Positions 25,073-30,005 of a DNA stretch of 64,000 nt are shown piece by piece. The translations under genes and the position numbers were made by a program. The notes under the pieces are model-generated. The model did no database searches and was not told the origin of the DNA. It saw nothing but the letters and a program-made list of their open reading frames with translations. The DNA lies in assembly GCA_900318115.1 (NCBI GenBank), contig ONJJ01000015.1, positions 1 through 64,000 of the forward strand, written 5' to 3'. Position 1 is the stretch's first letter. Every line of letters begins with the position of its first letter. The stretch comes from an uncultured Prevotellaceae bacterium (GTDB lineage: Bacteria; Bacteroidota; Bacteroidia; Bacteroidales; Bacteroidaceae).

Positions 25073-26335
25073 CTATGTACGAATCAGCAACTTTTCCGGC
25101 AAAAAAGTCTCGCCATCGTGGAGGCAAACGACAGGCCACTCGCTGCCGAAAAGGCGTTCAAAGGCTGCGGGGTGGTCGGTGTGAATGGGGATGATGGCAG
25201 ACGGACGTAGAATGGCGAACACTTTTGGGAGCTCCTGCATATCGCAGTGACCGCTGGTGTGCAGGTACTCGTAATCCTCCTCCAGCGCCCTGGCGAGATT
25301 TTCGTTGTAGGCTTCCGAGTCCTCTCTCAGATAACCCCGCCACATGGAAAGAACCTTCTTATCTACCGGTATCTGTGCCAGCAGATCATCGAATCGCTCA
25401 CCGGGGCGGGCTATGAGCACGTAGCCATATTTGGCAAGAGCGTACTTGAACCTGTCGGCTACAAAGAATCGATTCTTTTTATATTTGTGATAACAGAGCA
25501 CCTCCGGCTTGAAGCCGTCGTACTGATATAGCGGCGAACGGGTCCAGATGGAACGACTATTAACAACGGCATCCATGACGTACTTCTGATATTCGTCTAC
25601 ATAGAATCGTCGTCCAGCCCTCAAGGCAGCGTGGTACAGCGAGAACAACCGGTCGATATTCGTGGAAGAGAGGTAGACGACACAGCCCTTGTTCTCCCGG
25701 AACAGCGTTTCGAAGTCCTGCTGGAGCGCGCGCTCCGTTTTGCTGGAGGCGTCCGGTCGCGAGACATTCGTGCCTTCGCAAACCACATAATCCACCTTCC
25801 CCACAAACGTCTGAAGCATCTTTTCATACTTACCACTCCTGAAGCCGTGCAGGCGGAAATCGCCGGTGTGAAAGACAGACATTCCGCCTGCAGAAATCTT
25901 GAAGGCGTAGGCGTCGAAGGCGGAATGATCCATGGTCAAAGGAAGGATTTGGAATGGACCGAACGAGAGCCTTTCCGTCTCCTTGAATGTCCTGACGTGC
26001 TCCAGTCGCTCAAGCATCGCTTGATGAACGGGGCTCTTGGATTTCATGTAGTTCGAGACAACCCGCTGGATTTGGCATCCCACCTCACCCATATAAATAG
26101 GCAGTTCCGCAGGCAGCTGAGTGATGCAGCCTATGTGGTCGCCGTGGTAGTGAGTAATGAATAACGCGCTCTTCGAGAGGTCGCCGTGCGTCAGACCAGC
26201 CACCTTCAGCACACCAGACTTAGGGCCACCAGCCAGCTCTTCGCCGTAGTCGACGAAGAGCCGCCAGCCGTCCTGCTTATATTCCGTCACACACCCACCA
26301 ATCTGATGGGTGCCGCGATGGATGGTGATGGTCAT
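25073..26335 (-). CDS. Beta-CASP metallo-beta-lactamase-fold nuclease, RNase J-like
   Basis: A 420-residue protein. The metal-binding signature HYHGDH is at residues 62-67, a further Asp in HTGDFR near 155, and the beta-CASP motifs HTSGH (near 366) and IPIHTDH (near 388) sit at the C-terminal end. RNase J and related enzymes with this arrangement cut or trim RNA, and sometimes DNA. It is shorter than housekeeping RNase J (about 550). It follows the PD-(D/E)XK-like gene at 26339 with 3 bases between them, so they form one operon under the promoter at 27055-27086. The pairing suggests a nucleic-acid defence or repair role, which is inference. Confidence 0.85.
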   Translation of the reverse strand: MTITIHRGTHQIGGCVTEYKQDGWRLFVDYGEELAGGPKSGVLKVAGLTHGDLSKSALFITHYHGDHIGCITQLPAELPIYMGEVGCQIQRVVSNYMKSKSPVHQAMLERLEHVRTFKETERLSFGPFQILPLTMDHSAFDAYAFKISAGGMSVFHTGDFRLHGFRSGKYEKMLQTFVGKVDYVVCEGTNVSRPDASSKTERALQQDFETLFRENKGCVVYLSSTNIDRLFSLYHAALRAGRRFYVDEYQKYVMDAVVNSRSIWTRSPLYQYDGFKPEVLCYHKYKKNRFFVADRFKYALAKYGYVLIARPGERFDDLLAQIPVDKKVLSMWRGYLREDSEAYNENLARALEEDYEYLHTSGHCDMQELPKVFAILRPSAIIPIHTDHPAAFERLFGSEWPVVCLHDGETFLPEKLLIRT

Positions 26336-26338
26336 GGA

Positions 26339-27025
26339 TTATTTATTGATTTTATCGCTAATATTTTCACCTTGGACATCCCCTTTACTCCTACGATCAC
26401 TTTTTCCTTCTAATGCATAGCAGTAAAAGATTGCACCATTATTAATCTCAAGTTTTTTCTTTAAAGAACCAACTGTTCTTTTTGTTGAATCGCCTTCTGT
26501 ATATGATTTGATGACCTCTATAAAATAGCGAAGTACATCATCACCACCTTCTTCAGAATTATTAAGCTTCACAAAATCTTTTAGATGCTCATGTTCATCA
26601 GCGTTATTTGCTTTAAATTCAATGAGACATTTACGCTTAAGGTTCTCATCGAATATGACTAAATCAAACTCCGCTGACCTTCCACCATCAGAATTTGGTT
26701 TAGGATTACATCCCTCTTTCTTAGTAAAACCAGAGTATTTATCTATTGTCGGTGTCTCTATAGAATAGAACAAATTCAACCCTTTAGTATCACAATAATC
26801 GTTGAGAGCTTCTACAAAGCAAAAACGAAGTTCTTGCTCACTAATTCTTGTTCCATTCTTTTCCTTGTCTTTATAATATGCAGGAAACACTAATCTGCAT
26901 TCTTTTTTGGGGCAAGTGATGGGCGTCTTTGTATAACCTTCTTTATGTTGGTAAGCGTTACTTAAGCGAAAAAAAGTTTTCTCGATTATTGCATCTACAT
27001 GCTTTTTTAAATCTTGTTTATCCAT
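26339..27025 (-). CDS. PD-(D/E)XK nuclease-like protein, AT-rich
   Basis: A 228-residue protein. The only motif I can point to is Asp121 in GGRSAEFDLVIFDE followed by CLIEFKAN, so Asp121, Glu136 and Lys138 give the D-x(n)-ExK active-site pattern of restriction-endonuclease-like enzymes. Many lysines and asparagines, and an AT content clearly above its neighbours, suggest recent acquisition. It is the first gene of a two-gene unit with the beta-CASP nuclease. No methyltransferase or specificity protein lies nearby, so this is not an ordinary restriction-modification pair. Fold assignment is inference from the motif. Confidence 0.65.
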   Translation of the reverse strand: MDKQDLKKHVDAIIEKTFFRLSNAYQHKEGYTKTPITCPKKECRLVFPAYYKDKEKNGTRISEQELRFCFVEALNDYCDTKGLNLFYSIETPTIDKYSGFTKKEGCNPKPNSDGGRSAEFDLVIFDENLKRKCLIEFKANNADEHEHLKDFVKLNNSEEGGDDVLRYFIEVIKSYTEGDSTKRTVGSLKKKLEINNGAIFYCYALEGKSDRRSKGDVQGENISDKINK

Positions 27026-27099: not shown

Positions 27100-27174
27100 T
27101 TATGCCTCTTCATCCAGATTTACTTCCGCAAATCCCAAATCTGAGGTGTGGAATGCCTTATATTTCAGTTTCAT
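27100..27174 (-). CDS. Possible 24-residue frame overlapping the end of the DnaE-like gene
   Basis: A small open frame, MKLKYKAFHTSDLGFAEVN ending in DEEA, overlaps the last 17 bases of the 282-residue gene in another frame. It could be a coupled small protein or the true tail of the larger protein after a frameshift. Support is only position and an acidic, protein-like composition. Confidence 0.3.
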   Translation of the reverse strand: MKLKYKAFHTSDLGFAEVNLDEEA

Positions 27175-28006
27175 AATGATATCGCGAAACGACTCGGCTG
27201 ACTGCGTGAGCTTTCAGGAAAGCCCGCGGGTTGCTGGTGAGACGCTGCCAGGCAGTTTCTGCTTCTCGCAGCGTGATGCCTTTGAGGTTGCCGAAGATTT
27301 CTTTCCTGAAGGCCTCCACTTGCTCCGCCTCGCCTCGCTGGATGGCGAGGCGTATTCGGTTGGCTTTGAGACTTCCTACGTGAAAGGTCTGCCGAAGAAT
27401 ATCCATCATTTGCTCCTGATATATCACGATGTCACTGCCAAGAGTGCCATTGATGTAAGCCTCATACAAATCCATGGTCTGAGGGAAAGAGAGGGCATAG
27501 CGAGCCATCTCGTCTTCGAGACTCTCCGTCAGAGGGCGCTCCCGCTTGTGGCTCAGATATTCCATCGCTGTCAAGTCTTGCAACAGCGTTTTGCGGATGG
27601 CTGGGATGTCGAAATCTCCTGCATTAGATTGCAGCATATCCTCAGCTCCCTTCATAAACTCCCCGAACCGATTCGCCTCTATATCGAACTGGAATTTGGG
27701 CGGTGCTTCGTTGACGAAGCGGGCTGAGTGAAGAGCATATCTGACGGGATCTATCTCCGTGAGTCCCAGGCAGTAGCAGACGATGGACGACGGCATGCCA
27801 CCGCGCGCCCAACATTCAATCTGCGCCGAGGCAGCGAAGTGCCTGAAAATCCAGAATGCCAGGATGTAGTAGTCCACGAAGCCGGCATCAATGATATGCT
27901 TCTTCTCCCAGAGGAATCGCAGGAGGGCTTGCTGGCCGGGCTTGCTGCCGTAGCGCATTTTCATGCCTGCGGCAACAAGTCCGTGAAAGAGTTCCAAGTG
28001 TGTCAT
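27158..28006 (-). CDS. Small protein resembling DNA polymerase III alpha (DnaE) palm and thumb, probably inactive
   Basis: A 282-residue protein that reads like excised pieces of a C-family polymerase. Residues ~35-110 follow the DnaE palm pattern: a GFVDYYILAFWIF helix, then ARGGMPSSIVCYCLGLTEID (DnaE GRGSAAGSLVAYxLGIT), then RYALHSARFVNE and FQFDIEANR where DnaE has PDFDIDF. Residues ~192-280 follow the later DnaE segment: DIVIYQEQMMDIL (GVIVYQEQVMQI), then NPRAFLKAHAVSRVVSRY (GYGFNKSHAAAYALIAY). The second catalytic Asp is Glu, and the PHP, most of the fingers and the tau-binding parts are absent, so polymerase activity is unlikely. It is the last gene of a three-gene operon. Confidence 0.7.
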   Translation of the reverse strand: MTHLELFHGLVAAGMKMRYGSKPGQQALLRFLWEKKHIIDAGFVDYYILAFWIFRHFAASAQIECWARGGMPSSIVCYCLGLTEIDPVRYALHSARFVNEAPPKFQFDIEANRFGEFMKGAEDMLQSNAGDFDIPAIRKTLLQDLTAMEYLSHKRERPLTESLEDEMARYALSFPQTMDLYEAYINGTLGSDIVIYQEQMMDILRQTFHVGSLKANRIRLAIQRGEAEQVEAFRKEIFGNLKGITLREAETAWQRLTSNPRAFLKAHAVSRVVSRYHYETEI

Positions 28007-28014
28007 TTTCAGCC

Positions 28015-28515
28015 CTATCCTTTGAGCACCCTCTTGAATTCGACCACCATATTCTGCCGCTTCAGTATAGGCTGCCCCAGTCGCGTGGTGACGCCCTCGC
28101 AGTGCGCCTTCACCCAGTCCACTACCCGGTTGCGAATCTCGTTATCGTAGGCGATGGTCACTTGCAGGGGCTTCTGGGCGGCGAAGAGGCCGGGAAGATA
28201 GCTGGCGCTGTCGGGGCAGAACGACGTGATGTCGAGGATGAAAGGCACGAGTGTGCCGTTCAGGGAGCACTTGTCCGCTTCCGGCTCGAAGCCGAGCTCG
28301 CGGCGCACACCACTCACGATTTCGGCGAGGGCGAAAAGGTCGTCCGTCAGGCCGTTCTGGCAGATGGCATCCAGTTCTGCCTCGAGTTCCTGCTCCAGCC
28401 CTGCGAGGTCAAGACCCTTCTGCTTGATGTTGTATTTCACCTGGAAGCGGAACGATTCGCCTTTGGCACGGGCGGCCAGCTGGGCCTTGCGCTTTTGGTT
28501 TTGGTTTTTGCTCAT
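28015..28515 (-). CDS. Second small DnaE-palm-like protein
   Basis: A 166-residue protein with a basic N-terminus (SKNQNQKRKAQ). Residues ~38-145 can be laid over the same DnaE palm segment: EAELDAICQNGLTDDLFALAEIV (ELxxIxxMGFxDYFLIV), CSLNGTLVPFILDITSFCPD (GSAAGSLVAYxLGIT), and LQVTIAYDNEIRNRVVDWVK where DnaE has MPDIDIDFxxxxRDxVIxYV. Only one of the catalytic acids could be present. It overlaps the upstream sigma-like gene by 4 bases (ATGA) and is 8 bases before the 282-residue gene, so three products are probably made together. The relation to DnaE is my reading, weaker than for the next gene. Confidence 0.6.
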   Translation of the reverse strand: MSKNQNQKRKAQLAARAKGESFRFQVKYNIKQKGLDLAGLEQELEAELDAICQNGLTDDLFALAEIVSGVRRELGFEPEADKCSLNGTLVPFILDITSFCPDSASYLPGLFAAQKPLQVTIAYDNEIRNRVVDWVKAHCEGVTTRLGQPILKRQNMVVEFKRVLKG

Positions 28516-28910
28516 TGTTTTTGGATTTTTTTGTTAATATTGTCGATGATTTCTCTCAGTCTCTTCTCCGTCAGCCCGCGTTGCTCGGCTATCAGCCGCA
28601 GGCTCTTACCTTCTCCGAGACTTTGCATGATTTCTCGTTCGCGAGCCGTCAGGGCGTTCTCCCCGGGAATCGGTTTGCCAGCCTGGACAGCAGCTATCGC
28701 AACCGATATGCTCTTGCGCATAAATTTGAGGGCGTAGACTGCGAATTGCTTGTGTTCGTCCCAGGTTTCGGCAGCCCTCTCCAGTCCTTTGCCGGCCTGT
28801 TCGAGGAGCTGTTCCCACGTGAGTCCTTGGTCCAGATACTGCCTTGCTACCGCTTCCAGGTTGCGGCGGCTCTCTTCGAGCAATGTTTCGGTTTTTAGGT
28901 TTATGACCAT
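28512..28910 (-). CDS. 132-residue sigma-70-like protein with region 2 and an HTH
   Basis: Residues ~17-73 follow the sigma-70 region 2 pattern: NLEAVARQYLDQGLTWEQLL, then AGKGLERAAETWDEHKQFA and VYALKFMRKSIS, compared with NLRLV...GLxxxDLIQEGxxGLxxAxxxFD...FxxYAxxxIRxxI. Residues ~86-128 are a LuxR/region 4-like helix-turn-helix (LTAREREIMQSLGEGKSL, IAEQRGLTEKRLREI). The -10-contacting aromatic cluster of region 2.3-2.4 is reduced, so it may be a specialised or degraded sigma factor or a DNA-binding regulator. First gene of the operon with two DnaE-like proteins; overlap of 4 bases with the next. Confidence 0.72.
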   Translation of the reverse strand: MVINLKTETLLEESRRNLEAVARQYLDQGLTWEQLLEQAGKGLERAAETWDEHKQFAVYALKFMRKSISVAIAAVQAGKPIPGENALTAREREIMQSLGEGKSLRLIAEQRGLTEKRLREIIDNINKKIQKQ

Positions 28911-29087
28911 CTTTGACTTTTTTTGTGCGTTAGGAGGAATAGCCCTCCATTATATATATACGAAGAGGAAATGTAAAAAAACACAAAAAAAGGGCGTTTT
29001 TGCAATTTGATGTGCAAAAACTCCGCAGAAAGAAGCAGAAAAATGTGTTTTTTTTGCTAATCTAGCGTTCATCAACGCTATCAACAG

Positions 29088-30005
29088 TCAGTTGTCATAT
29101 CTCCCAAAGAGCTTCCTTGCCTCCTCCTTCATCCTTTCTCTCAACCCCTCGGGTTCGAGCACCTCAACTCTATCACCCATCGCCAGCAACTGACTAATCA
29201 GATCCGGCGTCAGGCACAGGCGATAGGTGAACTCTGCATACTCCCCACGAGAGTACTTCTTCAAACTTTGAGTTCTGTGGAGCGGCGTGGAGAGGAGGTA
29301 TTCAGCCTGAATGCCATAGGCACGAATCTTCACATTCTCGATGGGCAATTCAGGGTCCACATAAATACCAACCACGTTCTCATAATATTTTTTCGCATCG
29401 AAGTCTTTTGGCATGTCGAATTTGGTCTTCAGGATTTCGACATCAAGCATACGATCCAGCGACAAGTGGCGAAGTCCCTGCTGCTCCTTCAAGTATCCCA
29501 ACAGATACCAGCGATGAGCGTAGACTTTCAGTGCATAGGGCTGGACATGAAATTGCTGCCGGTGCTCCTCGCCTTGTTCGCCTTCAAACTTCTGATAGTC
29601 AATTACCAATTCGGTGTTCGTCCGCAGTGCCTCGAGGATTGGTTTAAGATATCTGGTTCCACAAGGAATCTCTTCCAGAAGGATTCTGTCCTGCAAGCTG
29701 TTGTAAGTCGCGAAACCCTCCGGGATGCTATAATTATCCAACGCCCATTTGGCTAATTTGTTCTGTTCCAGGACTTCCGGGTTCTTGACATAATACACGT
29801 TTCCCTTGGATCTGTCACATTCTATCACCACTCCGAACATCTCCTGAATGCCCTCTCGGTGCTCGTGAAAAGTACGTTTCGACAACATACCATCGAACGC
29901 AGGATTATCTACCCACAACCTGCAAATCTCATCAAACGTGAGAGGACTGCTTTGGAGGAGCGTGTCCAGTAGCCAGAAATACCGGTTATAAGTCTTGCTA
30001 ATCAT
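29088..30005 (-). CDS. WYL-domain transcriptional regulator
   Basis: A 305-residue regulator. The N-terminal ~90 residues form a winged helix-turn-helix (YNRYFWLLDTLLQSSPLTFDEICRLW, then LSKRTFHEHREGIQEMFG). The WYL domain spans ~130-215 with HVQPYALKVYAHRWYLLGY as its signature, followed by the WCX-type C-terminal extension (~225-300). WYL proteins respond to ligands, often nucleotides or nucleic acids, and regulate phage-defence and DNA-repair loci. Position, directly upstream of the sigma/DnaE-like operon and transcribed the same way, makes it a plausible controller of the island; that is inference. The 177-base gap downstream (28911-29087) is AT-rich with no gene. Confidence 0.9.
   Translation of the reverse strand: MISKTYNRYFWLLDTLLQSSPLTFDEICRLWVDNPAFDGMLSKRTFHEHREGIQEMFGVVIECDRSKGNVYYVKNPEVLEQNKLAKWALDNYSIPEGFATYNSLQDRILLEEIPCGTRYLKPILEALRTNTELVIDYQKFEGEQGEEHRQQFHVQPYALKVYAHRWYLLGYLKEQQGLRHLSLDRMLDVEILKTKFDMPKDFDAKKYYENVVGIYVDPELPIENVKIRAYGIQAEYLLSTPLHRTQSLKKYSRGEYAEFTYRLCLTPDLISQLLAMGDRVEVLEPEGLRERMKEEARKLFGRYDN

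What the first reader, a model, noticed from the sequence alone, without database searches (positions are those of the whole stretch)
27158..28910. Three-gene operon: mini sigma factor plus two DnaE-like fragments
A 132-residue protein with a sigma-70 region 2-like and HTH pattern overlaps by 4 bases a 166-residue protein, which is 8 bases from a 282-residue protein. The latter two appear to be excised pieces of the DnaE palm, and the second also of the later thumb/beta-binding segment (IVIYQEQMMDIL, NPRAFLKAHAVSRVVSRY). The catalytic Asp pattern is altered (FDIEANR in place of FDIDF), and the PHP and OB parts are absent. I know of no described system with this composition. Possible roles: a replication or transcription decoy, a sensor of DnaE, a phage-defence factor or a regulated repair complex. 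All functional statements are inference.
Basis: partly seen in the sequence, partly recalled or inferred. Interest (0 to 1): 0.85.

Follow-up and report, generated by a model that had tools for sequence, protein, structure and literature searches.

The report
Dead copies of host replication proteins
A Prevotella-like bacterium keeps shrunken copies of its own essential replication and transcription proteins beside predicted nucleases and a regulator gene, possibly as bait for viruses that attack those proteins; no function has been tested.

Summary
Three coupled minus-strand genes encode a mini sigma-70 and two DnaE fragments that have lost catalytic aspartates. Family profiles link both fragments to solved DnaE (E 6e-8 and 1e-28). 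The larger one is palm plus fingers, not the beta-binding part.

The surroundings make it larger. I examined 57 related loci. The genes recur beside a WYL regulator, one of 11 unlike protein families with a PD-(D/E)XK-type motif, and often an RNase J-like protein. Other loci add cut-down FtsZ, GyrA and DnaB, another DnaE piece, and RpoD in states from full length to region 2 alone. One ORF fuses a DnaE fragment to an FtsZ domain. A palindrome found once in the window's genome precedes the copies in 12 of 57 loci, whether sigma or DnaE comes first.

Best explanation: a bait array, dead copies of machines that phages attack, wired to nucleases. Main rival: dominant-negative poisons. Homology and linkage are shown; bait, trigger, nuclease activity and defence are inferred. 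Against it: 12 of 19 loci chosen by the RNase J-like gene carry no copy. Nine literature searches showed no description. Rated categorically new.

The parts
28512..28910 (-). P0003, 132 aa mini sigma-70: region 2 and a C-terminal helix-turn-helix read as region 4
   Evidence: RpoD profile E 4.3e-10; Pfam Sigma70_r2 E 0.0023, GerE E 1.4e-5, Sigma70_r4 E 0.039, some below Pfam's cut-off; own-genome match to RpoD residues 56-124
28015..28515 (-). P0002, 166 aa, DnaE palm-like fragment with both catalytic Asp positions of the loop changed
   Evidence: family profile A1 (11 sequences) against PDB DnaE E 5.7e-8; hhalign E 5e-15, score 112 against 21 in shuffles
27158..28006 (-). P0001, 282 aa, DnaE palm (first half) plus fingers; first catalytic Asp is Gln106, the second (Asp108) kept
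   Evidence: Pfam; family profile A2 against PDB E 1.4e-28 in two stretches; printed alignment
28997..29020 (.). palindrome TTTTTGCAcatcaaatTGCAAAAA, 67 bases past the WYL gene and 86 before P0003; operator or terminator
   Evidence: single match in the window's genome; also scored as terminator-like
28949..28977 (-). promoter-like TTTACA-17-TATAAT (11 of 12); consensus match only
   Evidence: 4 promoter-like sites found, 1.3 expected
29088..30005 (-). WYL/WCX transcription regulator, 305 aa
   Evidence: Pfam WYL E 1.7e-14, WCX E 7e-10; PADLOC WYL E 9e-31
26339..27025 (-). 228 aa protein with a PD-(D/E)XK-type motif (FDLVI...IEFK), predicted nuclease
   Evidence: no family hit; motif conserved in 6 relatives
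25073..26335 (-). 420 aa metallo-beta-lactamase-fold protein, RNase J-like
   Evidence: NCBIfam RNase J1 E 1.9e-18, far below the curated cut-off; Pfam Lactamase_B_2 E 2e-7, RMMBL E 2e-5

Best explanation
The locus is one variant of a modular WYL/nuclease locus that stocks degenerate copies of essential host proteins: DnaE and RpoD here, FtsZ, GyrA and DnaB in sister loci. I think the copies are bait. A phage (or plasmid) protein that disables or hijacks one of these machines binds the copy; this is read out, through WYL or by direct contact, and frees the PD-(D/E)XK-type and RNase J-like enzymes to destroy nucleic acid and stop the infection. Shown: homology and loss of catalytic residues of the DnaE copies, linkage, recurrence of pieces of five host machines, a shared upstream element in part of the loci, and full-length to shrunken RpoD copies. 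Inferred: binding partners, trigger, WYL control, enzyme activity and phage defence.
For: Both DnaE families confirmed by profile. Pieces of DnaB (E 2.9e-73), DnaE fingers (E 1.6e-16), GyrA (E 3e-8) and FtsZ (E 0.001 and 0.0017) in sister loci; FtsZ-like family E 4e-13; DnaE-FtsZ fusion L061. Of 18 P0001-type loci, 16 hold copies of at least two host proteins and 7 of at least three. All 28 sigma hits lie on the same strand within 190 nt of a WYL, nuclease-motif, RNase J-like or copy gene. G452, G596 and G443 hold a full-length RpoD in the locus and another elsewhere; G613 and G682 hold one with the middle deleted. P0001-type and P0002-type genes co-occur in 8 genomes, 1.2 expected. Palindrome: 19 hits in 658,638 bases of loci, 0.55 expected, maximum 4 in 20 simulations.
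Against: No experiment, no structure. 12 of 19 loci chosen by the RNase J-like gene have no copy, 13 of 19 no WYL, so parts of the module work without copies. The strict palindrome is in 15 of 57 loci, in three of them (L098, L221, L233) away from any copy gene, and may be a terminator. The nuclease families were recognised by eye from their motif; two clusters have Pfam support, and others tested had none. GyrA and DnaB pieces rest on 4 and 2 loci, the two DnaB ones nearly identical. That phages attack these machines is recalled, not tested; no phage inhibitor of DnaE is known to me. PADLOC names only WYL, and MzaA weakly.
Confidence: 0.4

Rival explanations
1. Dominant-negative poisons: on infection the fragments are made in bulk and jam the cell's own RNA polymerase, replisome, gyrase and division ring, an abortive infection without bait function.
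For: Copies keep host-like folds but lose catalysis; sigma copies keep region 2, the core-binding part (recalled); a regulator lies beside them.
Against: Full-length RpoD copies in three genomes should not be poisons; the nucleases would be redundant; DnaE palm/fingers pieces lack the parts that hold DnaE in the replisome (recalled).
Confidence: 0.2
2. Targeting subunits: the copies dock the nucleases onto phage or host replication and transcription complexes.
For: Copies and nuclease-motif genes are neighbours in most P0001-type and P0002-type loci.
Against: FtsZ copies do not fit; no fused copy-nuclease protein was seen.
Confidence: 0.1
3. A regulated repair or mutagenesis complex, with the DnaE-like proteins as an inactive polymerase partner.
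For: Mutasomes with DnaE2 and an inactive Y-family homologue exist (passages of PMC12926913).
Against: Catalytic Asp changed in both DnaE proteins; FtsZ and sigma copies unexplained; no ImuA/ImuB gene noticed by eye among the neighbours, but none was searched for by profile.
Confidence: 0.04
4. Decaying duplicates that happen to lie in a defence island.
For: P0003 dN/dS 0.94; RpoD copies in many stages of reduction.
Against: Intact coupled ORFs, P0001 dN/dS 0.21, same neighbours across genera, non-random co-occurrence without correction for shared ancestry.
Confidence: 0.06

Closest known systems
Effector-triggered bacterial immunity: PARIS, retrons Ec48/Se72, Ronin, Panoptes (passages of review PMC12409349)
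   Same: Senses a phage counter-attack instead of phage parts; Panoptes uses decoy molecules
   Different: Those decoys are nucleotides or sense anti-restriction or RecBCD inhibitors; here several essential proteins are copied. That this locus senses anything is inferred
DnaE / Pol III alpha
   Same: Sequence homology of P0001 and P0002
   Different: PHP, thumb, OB and catalytic residues missing
Sigma-70 RpoD
   Same: Homology of P0003
   Different: 132 aa, middle part missing, WW pair of the -10 segment replaced (by eye, recalled motif)
MZA system (MzaA)
   Same: Weak match of P0003 (E 8.8e-5)
   Different: MzaA is a 683-position model and P0003 fits RpoD better; the other MZA genes were not looked for

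Membership tests
DnaE / C-family DNA polymerase (P0001, P0002) | palm homology | tested here: met
DnaE / C-family DNA polymerase (P0001, P0002) | catalytic aspartates (E. coli D401, D403, D555; numbers recalled) | tested here: not met
   Gln106/Asp108 in P0001 and Thr/Ala in P0002 at the first two; the stretch between DnaE 434 and 645 has no counterpart in P0001
DnaE / C-family DNA polymerase (P0001, P0002) | PHP domain and C-terminal parts | tested here: not met
   matches begin near DnaE residue 312 and end near 790; 166 and 282 aa
Sigma-70 factor (P0003) | region 2 | tested here: met
Sigma-70 factor (P0003) | region 3 and full length | tested here: inconclusive
   132 aa; HTH fits region 4 (TIGR02937 117-164 of 165), but the RpoD profile alignment runs on as 9-124 to 4-126 of 238; region 3 clearly missing in G613 and G682 copies
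PD-(D/E)XK nuclease (26339-27025) | D...(D/E)-x-K motif | tested here: met
   conserved in 6 relatives
PD-(D/E)XK nuclease (26339-27025) | profile match or fold | tested here: inconclusive
   no Pfam or NCBIfam hit; fold not predicted
RNase J (25073-26335) | curated score cut-off | tested here: not met
   66.5 bits against 820
Known anti-phage system in PADLOC-DB 2.0 | any component match besides WYL | tested here: not met
   6 proteins scanned: WYL, and MzaA E 8.8e-5 for P0003
Effector-triggered defence | a phage protein triggers the output | not testable with these tools
   needs experiment

The most novel reading that the evidence does not exclude
Bacteria keep an interchangeable array of protein decoys cut from their own replisome, RNA polymerase, gyrase, helicase and division ring, which detects phages that disable those machines and fires interchangeable nucleases: an integrated-decoy immune system in prokaryotes, refreshed by repeated capture of host genes.
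Probability: 0.38. Interest if true: 0.95.

Novelty: categorically new. Interest (0 to 1): 0.86.

Why it matters
If the bait reading is right, a bacterium senses phage takeover by watching the targets instead of the phage. The list of copied proteins would then predict which host machines the phages of these bacteria attack, and each copy could be used as a hook to fish for unknown phage inhibitors of DnaE, sigma, FtsZ, gyrase or DnaB. Even under the poison reading, a locus type that collects dead pieces of five essential machines beside exchangeable nucleases is one I have not seen described.

Tried and rejected
Phage or plasmid origin: no close relative of P0001 in the plasmid (241 records) or phage (51 records) collections, all matches under 60% identity; the plasmid rows shown are mostly annotated as error-prone DNA polymerase. 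Viral contigs: one weak hit for P0001, none for the P0002 family, 42 for the P0001 family profile at up to 42% identity over short stretches, not examined one by one. Spread outside the family: in the order search (295 genomes) the listed matches other than G000 lie in frames of 834 aa or more; in the phylum search (296 genomes) the listed P0002-profile matches other than G000 lie in frames of 1083-1595 aa.

Pieces seen by eye and not borne out: c4 as FtsZ; L033_7, L222_2, L222_5, L218_14 and c6 (L222_2 only, with a faulty FtsZ alignment, and without a hit). L218_14 was nevertheless one of the six rows of alignment A3. L114_6 gave E 2.9e-5 to FtsZ and is not counted.

Own errors: the first FtsZ alignment held antisense frames, replaced. 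The palindrome pattern was wrong, replaced. The table double-counted cross-hits, replaced. In one search the nuclease models were built from these same neighbours, and five nucleases were added by eye (L053_5, L058_5, L061_9, L065_17, L034_5), so that column describes and does not test; WIN and L052 are close relatives and count as two. Of 20 MBL regions asked for, L076 (3363 bases) was left out of the counts.

Literature: nine searches answered. I saw listings, and passages of two papers (PMC12926913; PMC12409349). The library lacks most subscription papers.

Full report
What is there. Three genes on the minus strand, 28512-28910, 28015-28515 and 27158-28006, overlap by 4 bases and lie 8 bases apart. 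They encode a 132-residue sigma-like protein (P0003; RpoD profile E 4.3e-10), a 166-residue protein (P0002) and a 282-residue protein (P0001; Pfam DNA_pol3_alpha E 2.2e-15, fingers E 1.6e-5). Upstream is a WYL/WCX regulator (29088-30005); downstream a 228-aa protein with a PD-(D/E)XK-type motif (26339-27025) and an RNase J-like metallo-beta-lactamase-fold protein (25073-26335, 'MBL' below).

Both DnaE claims hold. The family profile of P0001 (A2, 13 sequences) matches M. tuberculosis DnaE1 in two stretches, 312-433 and 646-790, E 1.4e-28. The family profile of P0002 (A1, 11 sequences) matches DnaE 336-436 at E 5.7e-8; the best unrelated PDB hit is at E 0.044. Profile-profile scores against a DnaE alignment built here are 256 and 112, against maxima of 31 and 21 in 20 column shuffles each. 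By the printed alignments, P0001 has Gln106 and Asp108 at the first two catalytic aspartates, and the stretch between its two parts has no counterpart; P0002 has Thr and Ala there (E. coli numbers D401, D403, D555 are recalled). I expect neither to polymerise DNA. The C-terminal part of P0001 is fingers, not beta-binding.

The sigma gene. P0003 keeps region 2; its helix-turn-helix fits region 4, although the RpoD profile alignment runs on without a large gap. The WW pair of the -10 segment is replaced (by eye). Sister loci suggest a path of reduction: in G452, G596 and G443 the locus holds a full-length RpoD beside another elsewhere in the genome; in G613 and G682 the locus copy lacks the middle; others keep little more than region 2. 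In a tree of 40 sequences the 10 locus copies fall in several places, but long branches and low support leave the number of captures open.

Neighbourhoods. I examined 57 loci: 18 with P0001-type genes, 19 chosen by MBL in genomes without a close P0001-type gene, 20 chosen by P0002-type genes (20 of the 38 genomes). 54 are from the window's GTDB family, 3 are Prevotella-labelled contigs. Counts, within 8 kb: WYL 14 of 18, 6 of 19, 15 of 20; nuclease-motif families 15, 18, 17; MBL 11, 19 (by choice), 8; sigma 15, 3, 8. All 28 sigma hits lie within 190 nt, same strand, of another member gene. Several loci end at contig ends, so absences are uncertain. Eleven unlike clusters, which I had picked by eye as nucleases, share D...E-x-K (three clusters have only 2 members); two clusters hit Pfam REase-ARP/PDDEXK_13.

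More pieces of host machines. Single proteins from sister loci match DnaB (E 2.9e-73, positions 174-365 of 435), the DnaE finger region (E 1.6e-16), GyrA (E 3e-8, positions 368-454) and FtsZ (E 0.001 and 0.0017, C-terminal domain). As a family the FtsZ-like proteins match FtsZ at hhalign E 4e-13, score 91 against a maximum of 18 in 20 shuffles; against the PDB 8 of 11 hits are FtsZ, best E 0.0013. L061 carries a DnaE-like part and an FtsZ domain in one 432-residue ORF. In one search FtsZ-like pieces are in 7 loci, GyrA-like in 4, DnaB-like in 2 (near-identical), DnaE finger pieces in 3. Of 18 P0001-type loci 16 hold copies of at least two host proteins and 7 of at least three; of 19 MBL loci 7 hold any copy and 4 at least two; of 20 P0002-type loci 12 hold at least two.

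Distribution. In the same 399 genomes, P0001-type genes are in 13, P0002-type in 38, MBL in 41. P0001-type with P0002-type: 8 genomes (1.2 expected, p 3e-6); P0002-type with MBL: 16 (3.9 expected, p 4e-8); P0001-type with MBL: 6 (1.3 expected, p 8e-4). Shared ancestry is not corrected for, and many genomes are incomplete. Outside the family the listed matches were all in long DnaE-size frames. The genome collection gave four contigs, three of them labelled Prevotella or Prevotellaceae.

Regulation. The palindrome TTTTTGCAcatcaaatTGCAAAAA lies 67 bases past the WYL gene and 86 before P0003. Its pattern gives 19 hits in 658,638 bases of the loci, 0.55 expected (maximum 4 in 20 first-order simulations). 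It stands 68-99 nt before sigma-first (L055, L065) and P0002-first genes (L099, L100, L216, L217, L218), and also near the copies in WIN, L034, L052, L057 and L058: 12 of 57 loci. L098, L221 and L233 have it away from a copy gene, and L052 and L055 have one extra copy each that is not before a copy gene. L061 and L064 have a different palindrome, as have L227 and L231. The exact pattern occurs once in the window's genome, which is 87% complete. It is often followed by T-runs and scores as a terminator: operator, terminator or both are open. A CGTATA-A/T element follows in many of these regions: 55 matches in the loci, 33 within 140 nt before a gene, of the genes so hit 12 sigma and 8 P0002-type.

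How it most likely works. A cell has little reason to keep dead pieces of DnaE, RpoD, FtsZ, GyrA and DnaB beside exchangeable nucleases unless the pieces matter as surfaces. Phages are known to attack sigma, FtsZ, DnaB and gyrase (recalled). I therefore favour bait: a phage protein that binds the copy betrays the infection, and the nucleases act. The copies could instead poison the cell's own machines when induced, or guide nucleases. The data cannot decide; the full-length RpoD copies and the DnaE-FtsZ fusion sit better with bait than with poison.

Comparison. A 2025 review describes systems in which phage counter-attack is sensed (PARIS, retrons, Ronin, Panoptes with decoy nucleotides) (passages). 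In the passages, in PADLOC and in the nine search listings I saw no system that stocks copies of several essential proteins. A 2026 survey of bacterial polymerases treats inactive homologues; the 12 of 13 passages shown name no such fragments.

Limits. No structure could be predicted. GyrA and DnaB pieces rest on few loci. Selection estimates rest on few changes.

Noticed in passing
G000:C42:148537-148902 (locus L239): A second shortened sigma-like gene (220-residue frame, 39% identical to RpoD over 120 residues) in the window's genome, beside an ORF with a D...E-x-K-like motif by eye and a reverse-transcriptase-like ORF.
   Followed up: partly
L237 (G000:C38), L266, L267, L268, L269: Five of the 31 genomes, four of them with a P0001-type locus, have a second full-length FtsZ; where I looked (L237, L267, L268, L269) no cell-division neighbour such as FtsA was evident, and L268 has a DnaB-like ORF beside it.
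   Followed up: partly
L099:7322-8992, L217:4323-5996: An AAA+ ATPase-like protein of about 556 aa next to the P0002-type gene in two loci.
   Followed up: no
L056 (511 aa ORF), L065 (501 aa ORF): The DnaE-like part is fused to a C-terminal run of WG-type repeats (motif recalled).
   Followed up: no
L222:1097-2095: 332-aa ORF that clusters with the metallophosphoesterases; its first part resembled FtsZ by eye, not borne out by profile.
   Followed up: partly
L114, L115, L218 (ORFs L114_4, L114_7, L115_11, L115_12, L218_16): A family of 200-350 aa proteins recurring near the MBL and nuclease genes; no family known to me.
   Followed up: no
L314 (G443:C46): WYL, nuclease, shortened sigma and c4 in a row at a contig end; G443 contigs C1 and C11 begin with c4-type remains and P0001-type genes, so the assembly may have broken inside repeated loci.
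   Followed up: partly
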